Shown here one piece after another: positions 16,201 through 16,478 of a stretch of 58,919 bases of DNA; within the stretch, counting starts at the first letter, position 1; each line of letters begins with the position of its first letter. The notes below the pieces were generated by a model. That model was not told the origin of the DNA, searched no databases, and saw nothing but the letters and a program-made list of their open reading frames with translations. The translations under genes and the position numbers were made by a program. This DNA is from Candidatus Methylomirabilota bacterium (GTDB lineage Bacteria > Methylomirabilota > Methylomirabilia > Methylomirabilales > Methylomirabilaceae). The stretch lies in NCBI GenBank assembly GCA_028870115.1, contig JAGWQH010000064.1:1-58919 (forward strand). The letters are read 5' to 3'.

Positions 16201-16478
16201 TCATGACGCTGGAGGACGAGACCGGCTTTGTCAACATCGTCCTCTGGCCGAACGTTTTTAAGCGGCATGCCACCTTGGCCAAGACGGCTACCTTCCTAGG
16301 CGTCACCGGGACCCTACAGGTCGACCTGTCTGCGTGCGGACCTGTCTGCCGTGCCGAGCACGACACAGGCAGGCACGCACAGGCAGGACAGGGCGTCGTC
16401 CATCTCGTCGCCGAACGCCTCTGGCAGCCGCCAATACACCGCGACCTCGCCACCGCCCCCAGCCGCGATTTTCATTAA
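13212..16478 (+). CDS. dnaE2: Error-prone DNA polymerase DnaE2 (ImuC)
   Basis: 1088 residues. The N-terminal PHP domain starts [19 protein letters not shown]. The C-family polymerase core carries the acidic triad: Asp397, Asp399 (PDIDLDIQ) and Asp546 (KVDLLGLGA). A helix-hairpin-helix region ([16 protein letters not shown]) and a C-terminal OB fold ([20 protein letters not shown]) follow. With ImuA and ImuB it performs LexA-controlled translesion synthesis. The GAGGGGG stretch near 13193 may serve as ribosome site. Odd: palindromic elements are embedded in frame at 13427-13456, 13646-13675, 15737-15763 and 16325-16387 (the last nested). They add peptides such as [21 protein letters not shown] and LPVRCTQTG in loops away from the catalytic residues. 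Confidence 0.95.
13427..13456 (+). repeat. Palindromic element inside dnaE2 (30 nt)
   Basis: Runs from TCTGCCTGTGCG to CGCACGCAGACAGG. It is read in frame as [10 protein letters not shown] near residues 72-81 in the PHP domain, between [11 protein letters not shown] and SILVLLAQ, which are normally close together in the family. Confidence 0.78.
13646..13675 (+). repeat. Palindromic element inside dnaE2 (30 nt)
   Basis: CCTGTCTGCGTGCG and CGCACAGACAGG arms surround GAGA. It is read in frame as [11 protein letters not shown] near residues 145-155. Confidence 0.8.
15737..15763 (+). repeat. Palindromic element inside dnaE2 (27 nt)
   Basis: CCTGCCTGTGCG and GCACGCAGACAGG arms. It is read in frame as LPVRCTQTG near residues 842-851, just after the helix-hairpin-helix motif. 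Confidence 0.78.
16325..16387 (+). repeat. Nested pair of palindromic elements inside dnaE2 (30 + 33 nt)
   Basis: An outer element (CCTGTCTGCGTGCG-GA at 16325-16340, CACGCACAGGCAGG at 16374-16387) is split by a complete 33-nt inner element (16341-16373; arms CCTGTCTG and CAGGCAGG). Both units are multiples of three and the dnaE2 frame is kept through them (residues about 1038-1058). Confidence 0.75.

What the first reader, a model, noticed from the sequence alone, without database searches (positions are those of the whole stretch)
16325..16387. One palindromic element nested inside another
A complete 33-nt element (16341-16373) splits a 30-nt element (halves 16325-16340 and 16374-16387), and the dnaE2 frame survives. 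Nesting implies that the elements insert as units and that insertion can target the centre of an existing copy.
Basis: seen in the sequence. Interest (0 to 1): 0.7.

Follow-up and report, generated by a model that had tools for sequence, protein, structure and literature searches.

The report
Nested pair of jumping hairpin repeats
A 63-base insertion in a bacterial mutagenic DNA-polymerase gene is one tiny hairpin repeat sitting inside another; the same pair turns up at three different genome addresses, so it probably arrived here as a ready-made unit, and nesting of these repeats is a general habit, which makes the unsolved question of how such tiny elements move easier to test.

Summary
In dnaE2 of a Candidatus Methylomirabilis (NC10) genome, a 33-nt hairpin element (16341-16373) splits a 30-nt element, and the frame stays open. 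Six relatives have a clean empty site, so exactly 63 nt (21 codons) was inserted, with no target duplication. No relative has only the outer element. One relative (G007) carries the whole 63-nt block at the same point, and the same block sits at two further addresses in G007/G014. The best reading is that the nesting is older and the composite moved into dnaE2 as one unit.

Nesting itself is real. About a dozen nested arrangements were seen in Methylomirabilota and IMG/VR contigs, including a double and a triple nest that peel back to exact family members. The centre is not the special target: an arm site (CTGCG^TGC) was hit five times. The general preference is weak (purine^pyrimidine).

The family (mostly 24, 27, 30 and 33 nt, with a T.G wobble and CA bulge) also occurs in groundwater "Deltaproteobacteria" and in phage contigs. 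It is concentrated in the imuA-imuB-dnaE2 operon. It lacks the GTAG/CGTC tag and REP-transposase linkage. The driver is unknown.

The parts
16325..16340 (+). left half of outer 30-nt element (type A30)
   Evidence: joined halves equal a stand-alone 30-nt family member
16341..16373 (+). inner 33-nt element (type B33), complete, same orientation
16374..16387 (+). right half of outer 30-nt element
13212..16478 (+). dnaE2 (error-prone DNA polymerase), 1088 aa, host gene of the composite and of three other element insertions
13427..13456 (-). 30-nt element in dnaE2 ([10 protein letters not shown]); 30 nt also in G014, 27 nt in G005, empty in G006, G008, G010, G013, G057
13646..13675 (+). 30-nt element in dnaE2 ([10 protein letters not shown]), only in this genome; empty site reads GCCGA^TCC
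15737..15763 (-). 27-nt element in dnaE2 (LPVRCTQTG), only in this genome
11219..13039 (+). imuB (impB/mucB/samB family PF00817; the true start is probably downstream of 11219), carries four element insertions
12328..12348 (+). 21-nt element in imuB (LSASQAG)
12359..12385 (-). 27-nt element in imuB (PACASHADR), 10 nt from the previous one
12549..12575 (-). 27-nt B-type element in imuB (TCLCRHGRQ), a B-type copy standing alone in this genome
12904..12933 (+). 30-nt element near the imuB 3' end (LSACEHAQA), shared with G005, empty elsewhere
52375..52401 (-). 27-nt copy inside a longer duplicated repeat
56086..56112 (-). 27-nt copy inside a longer duplicated repeat
13083..13128 (+). copy of the other dispersed repeat (GTTGCGAGCG...GGGAGCGTGGCAATC), empty at the point where other copies carry 27-, 30- or 63-nt insertions

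Best explanation
The 63-nt block is a second-order mobile element. A 33-nt hairpin element (type B) once inserted into the centre of a 30-nt hairpin element (type A), and the resulting composite then spread as a unit; one copy landed in frame in dnaE2. The family consists of non-coding imperfect hairpins (24, 27, 30 or 33 nt in the main) with conserved ends CCTGTCTG...CAGGCAGG, a T.G wobble, a CA bulge and a variable but self-pairing tip. Copies insert in either orientation with no target duplication at weakly specified purine^pyrimidine steps. Inferred, not shown: a recombinase acting in trans recognises the folded single strand, much as TnpA-REP or IS200/IS605 transposases do. Nesting follows because the elements carry good target steps in the tip (CGGA^CACG, GCGA^CGC) and in the arm (CTGCG^TGC). 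Copies persist in genes because the main sizes are multiples of three and the consensus has no stop codon in any frame.
For: The composite was found at exactly three addresses class-wide: dnaE2 in G000 and G007; G007:C13 = G014:C152; and G007:C46 = G014:C61. At the latter two it sits inside copies of an unrelated repeat (GGGAG^CGTGGC) whose own sequences are about 84% alike while the composites are identical; other copies of that repeat carry a lone 27- or 30-nt element at the same point. In dnaE2, six relatives are empty and none has the outer element alone. The dnaE2 composite differs at 2 of 63 sites between G000 and G007 while flanks differ at 80 of 420 (Fisher p = 0.0009), so it is younger than the gene split or was moved separately. 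Other nests exist, including one outer with two inserts (L201) and a triple nest (L211) that peel to exact family members. Flank preference: -1 is A/G in 49 of 53, +1 is C/T in 44 of 53. The T.G wobble is kept in 9 of 11 copies found with mismatches allowed.
Against: Inner elements at dnaE2 (CCGAGCACG) and at the repeat addresses (TCGAATACG) differ at several sites while outer halves are identical, so two independent nestings at the same step of A30 are possible. On the gltX tree G000 lies nearer G001/G010 than G007/G014 (93/92, several branches unresolved), so the shared dnaE2 insertion needs parallel insertion, loss, or transfer. G010's empty site reads CAGGCAGGACAGG, which could be the scar of a deletion between CAGG repeats and hence evidence of older presence. 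The G007 dnaE2 piece is a 189-aa fragment, so its history may be unusual. No mobilising enzyme was identified. High conservation of the insert could also reflect local gene conversion.
Confidence: 0.6

Rival explanations
1. Stepwise nesting in place: the 30-nt A element entered dnaE2 first and the 33-nt B element later entered its centre; the other composites are independent nestings at the same favoured step of A30.
For: Nesting of one element into another clearly happens elsewhere. The inner sequences at dnaE2 and at the other addresses differ while the outer halves are identical. Lone A30 copies exist at the paralogous repeat target (L225).
Against: No relative has A30 alone in dnaE2. G000 and G007 share the same inner variant at the same point, which would need the two-step event twice or one old event, and the low insert divergence (2/63 against 19% in the flanks) argues against an old event.
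Confidence: 0.22
2. Old vertical insertion in dnaE2, kept by selection or gene conversion in some lineages and deleted in others (for example in G010 through the CAGG direct repeats).
For: G010, on a nearby branch to G000, has CAGGCAGGACAGG where other empties have CAGGCCGAACAGG, which is what a deletion between the flanking CAGG and the terminal CAGG of the element would leave.
Against: Needs losses in G005, G008 and G013 as well, with restoration of the ancestral codons; insert divergence is far below flank divergence.
Confidence: 0.1
3. The elements are REP sequences mobilised by a RAYT (TnpA-REP) transposase.
For: Similar size, asymmetric hairpin with conserved mismatch and bulge, no target duplication; intragenic REPs are reported in DnaE2 and other repair genes (PMC3733652); a bulge is needed for REP recognition in E. 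coli (PMC8266576).
Against: No GTAG or CGTC tag at either end. None of 41 Y1_Tnp (PF01797) genes in the order has a convincing copy within 1 kb. G001, G008 and G011 carry elements without any PF01797 match.
Confidence: 0.06
4. Replication slippage or hairpin-templated repair expanded one palindrome into a longer one.
For: The composite folds into one long hairpin. G032:C39 (L200) has serial left arms that could be slippage.
Against: Inner and outer are different subtypes, both exist alone, and nests occur off-centre and in inverted orientation.
Confidence: 0.02

Closest known systems
GTAG- and CGTC-tagged REPs (PMC3733652)
   Same: 20-40 nt asymmetric hairpins, many copies, some inside ORFs including DnaE2 and other repair genes, some inserted into target palindromes; CGTC REPs lack a linked transposase.
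   Different: No GTAG or CGTC tag found; many copies are clean in-frame insertions, whereas most REPs are intergenic; forms nested composites rather than dimers.
Yeast mitochondrial GC clusters, e.g. GC42 (PMC4478555)
   Same: Short mobile palindromes of unknown mechanism; stand-alone and merged forms coexist and merged forms vary in copy number as units.
   Different: Mitochondrial, flanked by AG or ACT direct repeats read as target duplications; none seen here.
Rickettsia palindromic elements (RPE; PMC10969869, PMC3733652)
   Same: Palindromes inserted in frame in unrelated protein-coding genes.
   Different: The classic RPEs are about 150 bp (PMC10969869) and R. conorii RPE sequences end in CGTC (PMC3733652); the present family is 21-33 nt, untagged, also outside genes and in phage contigs.
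Small dispersed repeats of cyanobacteria (Elhai et al. 2008; cited in PMC3116915, the paper itself is not held)
   Same: Very small mobile repeats; from memory also found inside other repeats.
   Different: Different sequence and host; not compared here.

Membership tests
REP (RAYT-mobilised) | Conserved GTAG (or CGTC) tetranucleotide at one end | tested here: not met
   Flanks of 82 copies show no recurrent tag; only a purine^pyrimidine bias
REP (RAYT-mobilised) | RAYT/Y1 transposase gene flanked by the repeats | tested here: not met
   0 of 41 Y1_Tnp genes in the order flanked by a convincing copy within 1 kb; G001, G008, G011 have elements but no PF01797 hit
REP (RAYT-mobilised) | 20-40 nt imperfect hairpin with conserved mismatch or bulge | tested here: met
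   A27 and A30 fold with a two-base bulge; T.G wobble kept in 9 of 11 mismatch-tolerant hits
Rickettsia palindromic elements | In-frame insertion inside protein-coding genes | tested here: met
   Eight in-frame insertions in imuB-dnaE2 with empty sites in relatives
Rickettsia palindromic elements | Length about 150 bp, or a CGTC end tag | tested here: not met
   Length 21-33 nt, no CGTC tag
MITE of a DDE transposon | Target-site duplication | tested here: not met
   Filled versus empty alignments show insertion of exactly 21, 27, 30 or 63 nt without duplication
MITE of a DDE transposon | Full-length autonomous relative with the same ends | not tested
   No systematic search for a parent element was made
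Mobile GC clusters (yeast mitochondria) | Merged clusters that are themselves mobile | tested here: inconclusive
   Composite at three addresses but independent nestings are not excluded

The most novel reading that the evidence does not exclude
A trans-acting activity not linked to any known transposase moves folded 24-63 nt hairpins, including second-order composites, between phyla; phages may carry them, since near-identical copies occur in Methylomirabilota, groundwater 'Deltaproteobacteria' MAGs and phage contigs. Insertion is drawn to the SOS mutagenesis operon imuA-imuB-dnaE2.
Probability: 0.2. Interest if true: 0.75.

Novelty: new variant of a known kind. Interest (0 to 1): 0.5.

Why it matters
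How tiny palindromic repeats move is unsolved for most families. This family offers what is usually missing: exact filled and empty sites in the same genes of close relatives, nests that can be peeled layer by layer into exact members, a composite caught at three addresses, and copies in phage contigs. That gives exact ends, absence of target duplication, a target preference and a relative order of insertion. The concentration in the error-prone polymerase operon repeats a reported tendency of REPs to sit in repair genes (PMC3733652) and makes its cause testable.

Tried and rejected
REP/RAYT link: 41 Y1_Tnp neighbourhoods checked, no convincing flanking copies. Restriction to the order Methylomirabilales, suggested, was withdrawn after IMG/VR and named-genome scans. 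Preference for coding DNA: not seen with a crude ORF test (random control positions 72% in ORFs of 200 aa or more; elements not higher). L046:664 in imuA of G010 looked nested but is only part-elements. An AlphaFold model of the DnaE2 C-terminal domain was too poor to place the insert (mean pLDDT 41.5). Rfam found no family. One genus pattern search was wasted by a wrong gap length. The count of T.G wobbles over all fetched loci (86 of 92) is biased because the loci were fetched with those bases specified; only the 9 of 11 is used. L200 (serial left arms) was left unassigned.

Full report
Observation. The 63 nt at 16325-16387 are as described: outer halves CCTGTCTGCGTGCGGA and CACGCACAGGCAGG around CCTGTCTGCCGTGCCGAGCACGACACAGGCAGG. 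The host gene is dnaE2 (1088 aa; Pfam PHP, DNA_pol3_alpha, finger, HHH_6, OB fold), third gene of an imuA (RecA-like) - imuB - dnaE2 operon. The genome is a 2.81-Mb Candidatus Methylomirabilis MAG: a same-genus dnaE2 neighbour is named Ca. M. oxygeniifera. The two-arm pattern occurs 24 times in the genome and its reversed control 0 times.

Empty sites. At the dnaE2 point G005, G006, G008, G010, G013 and G057 lack the block, and exactly 63 nt (21 codons) is missing. Seven more insertions in imuB-dnaE2 of this genome have the same property (21, 27 or 30 nt, precise, no target duplication, frame kept): [20 protein letters not shown] and LPVRCTQTG in DnaE2; LSASQAG, PACASHADR, TCLCRHGRQ and LSACEHAQA in ImuB. 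Five of these are seen only in this genome, so insertion looks recent in its lineage; the others are patchy (G014, G005). By exact pattern, 4 of 23 distinct copies in G000 and 2 of 10 in G005 lie in this operon, against about 0.05 and 0.02 expected (Poisson 2e-7 and 2e-4); in G008 one of five lies in imuA.

Was it nested here? G007 carries the whole 63-nt block at the same dnaE2 point, in a fragment of the gene (189-aa frame). The same composite is at G007:C13:5628 (= G014:C152, which has 3 extra nt) and G007:C46:63967 (= G014:C61), there inside copies of another dispersed repeat (GTCATTGCGAGCGACC..GGGAG^CGTGGCAATC). Class-wide the composite start occurs at no other address. Other copies of that repeat carry a lone 30-nt (L225) or 27-nt (L227, L231) element at the same target point, and the copy at window 13083 has none. 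In dnaE2, no intermediate was found. The insert differs at 2 of 63 sites between G000 and G007, the flanks at 80 of 420 (Fisher p = 0.0009), while gltX puts G000 nearer G001 and G010. I infer that the composite formed once or a few times and entered dnaE2 as a unit, possibly twice. G010's empty site (CAGGCAGGACAGG) may be a deletion scar, so older presence with loss is not excluded.

Nesting in general. Excising every detected element and testing whether the flanks close into another member gave about ten positives among 144-147 elements, against 45 of 48,400 random excisions. Clear cases: A30 with B33 (this one); G010:C3 and G010:C122 at the tip; G032:C229 (L202) in the left arm of an exact 29-nt member; G032:C222 (L206) inverted at the same arm step; G032:C213 (L201), a 29-nt member carrying B27 at the tip and a 30-nt element inverted in the arm, which peels to an exact copy of a stand-alone element (G032:C47); G018:C195 (L212); G025:C226 (L211), a triple nest that peels to a 27-nt member; and IMG/VR contigs L311 and L319, again inverted at CTGCG^TGC. 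So the centre is one target and the arm step CTGCG^TGC another, hit five times (L201, L202, L206, L311, L319). Across 53 distinct sites the base before is A or G in 49 and the base after is C or T in 44, with a further G preference at +4.

Anatomy. The hairpin has a conserved base (CCTGTCTG / CAGGCAGG with one T.G wobble), a two-base bulge and a variable self-pairing tip. In Methylomirabilis 83 of 85 exact copies listed have a length divisible by three (my count from the table), against 45 of 60 in genus g5. ORF context is not enriched, so the length pattern seems to be a property of the subfamilies that amplified, which then survive well inside genes.

Distribution. Within the phylum the family is in Methylomirabilis and genus g5, nearly absent elsewhere. 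Outside, 2 of 50 named genomes reached through dnaE2 loci carry it (two groundwater 'Deltaproteobacteria' MAGs, JACPSE01 and JACPFE01; between them A30, A29, A27 and B27 sequences identical to those above), and 42 stretches of IMG/VR contigs do, at least two of them clear phage contigs (Mu portal and tail tube in L319; portal and terminase in L311). The spread is therefore wide and patchy, which suggests horizontal movement; its limits are not mapped.

Mechanism. Shown: precise, duplication-free insertion in both orientations; weak target preference; nesting; composites at several addresses. Inferred: recognition of a folded single strand by an enzyme acting in trans. The obvious candidate, a REP-type Y1 transposase, fails the linkage and tag tests. 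Known parallels are GTAG/CGTC REPs, which also sit in DnaE2 and repair genes and enter target palindromes (PMC3733652), yeast GC clusters whose mergers are mobile (PMC4478555), and RPEs (PMC10969869). A paper on cyanobacterial small dispersed repeats is not held.

Noticed in passing
window 12328-16387: The imuA-imuB-dnaE2 operon is a hot spot for the elements in several species (4 of 23 exact copies in G000, 2 of 10 in G005, one of 5 in G008), with different insertion points.
   Followed up: partly
window 16500-16628; also L154, L160, L161, L162: A remnant of an integron-type integrase C-terminus ([30 protein letters not shown]) lies just downstream of dnaE2, and relatives hold several extra copies of the DnaE2 C-terminal tail, several with such a remnant nearby.
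   Followed up: partly
L141, L203, L204, L200 (G003, G032): Different elements sit at nearly the same point of integrase genes, in or next to the [13 protein letters not shown] motif.
   Followed up: no
L309-L350 (IMG/VR contigs): The element occurs in 42 viral-collection stretches of 43-68% GC; contig IMGVR_UViG_3300044786_000060 (27 kb) holds several copies, at least seven by exact pattern.
   Followed up: partly
L134, L135, L170, L171, L224, L191, L003-L006: Many 30-nt copies sit at one fixed point and in both orientations inside another dispersed repeat (CGTCATTCCG^TGCGTGACACGCC).
   Followed up: no
G010 dnaE2, L159: The empty site reads CAGGCAGGACAGG instead of CAGGCCGAACAGG, as if the element had been deleted through CAGG direct repeats.
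   Followed up: partly
G013 and G008 dnaE2 (L014, L016): Further in-frame insertions unrelated to this family (SVGAGSPRPY; PSASLRAG) lie in the same gene, apparently from other palindromic repeats.
   Followed up: no
Methylomirabilis versus genus g5: Element lengths are multiples of three in 83 of 85 exact copies in Methylomirabilis but only 45 of 60 in genus g5.
   Followed up: partly
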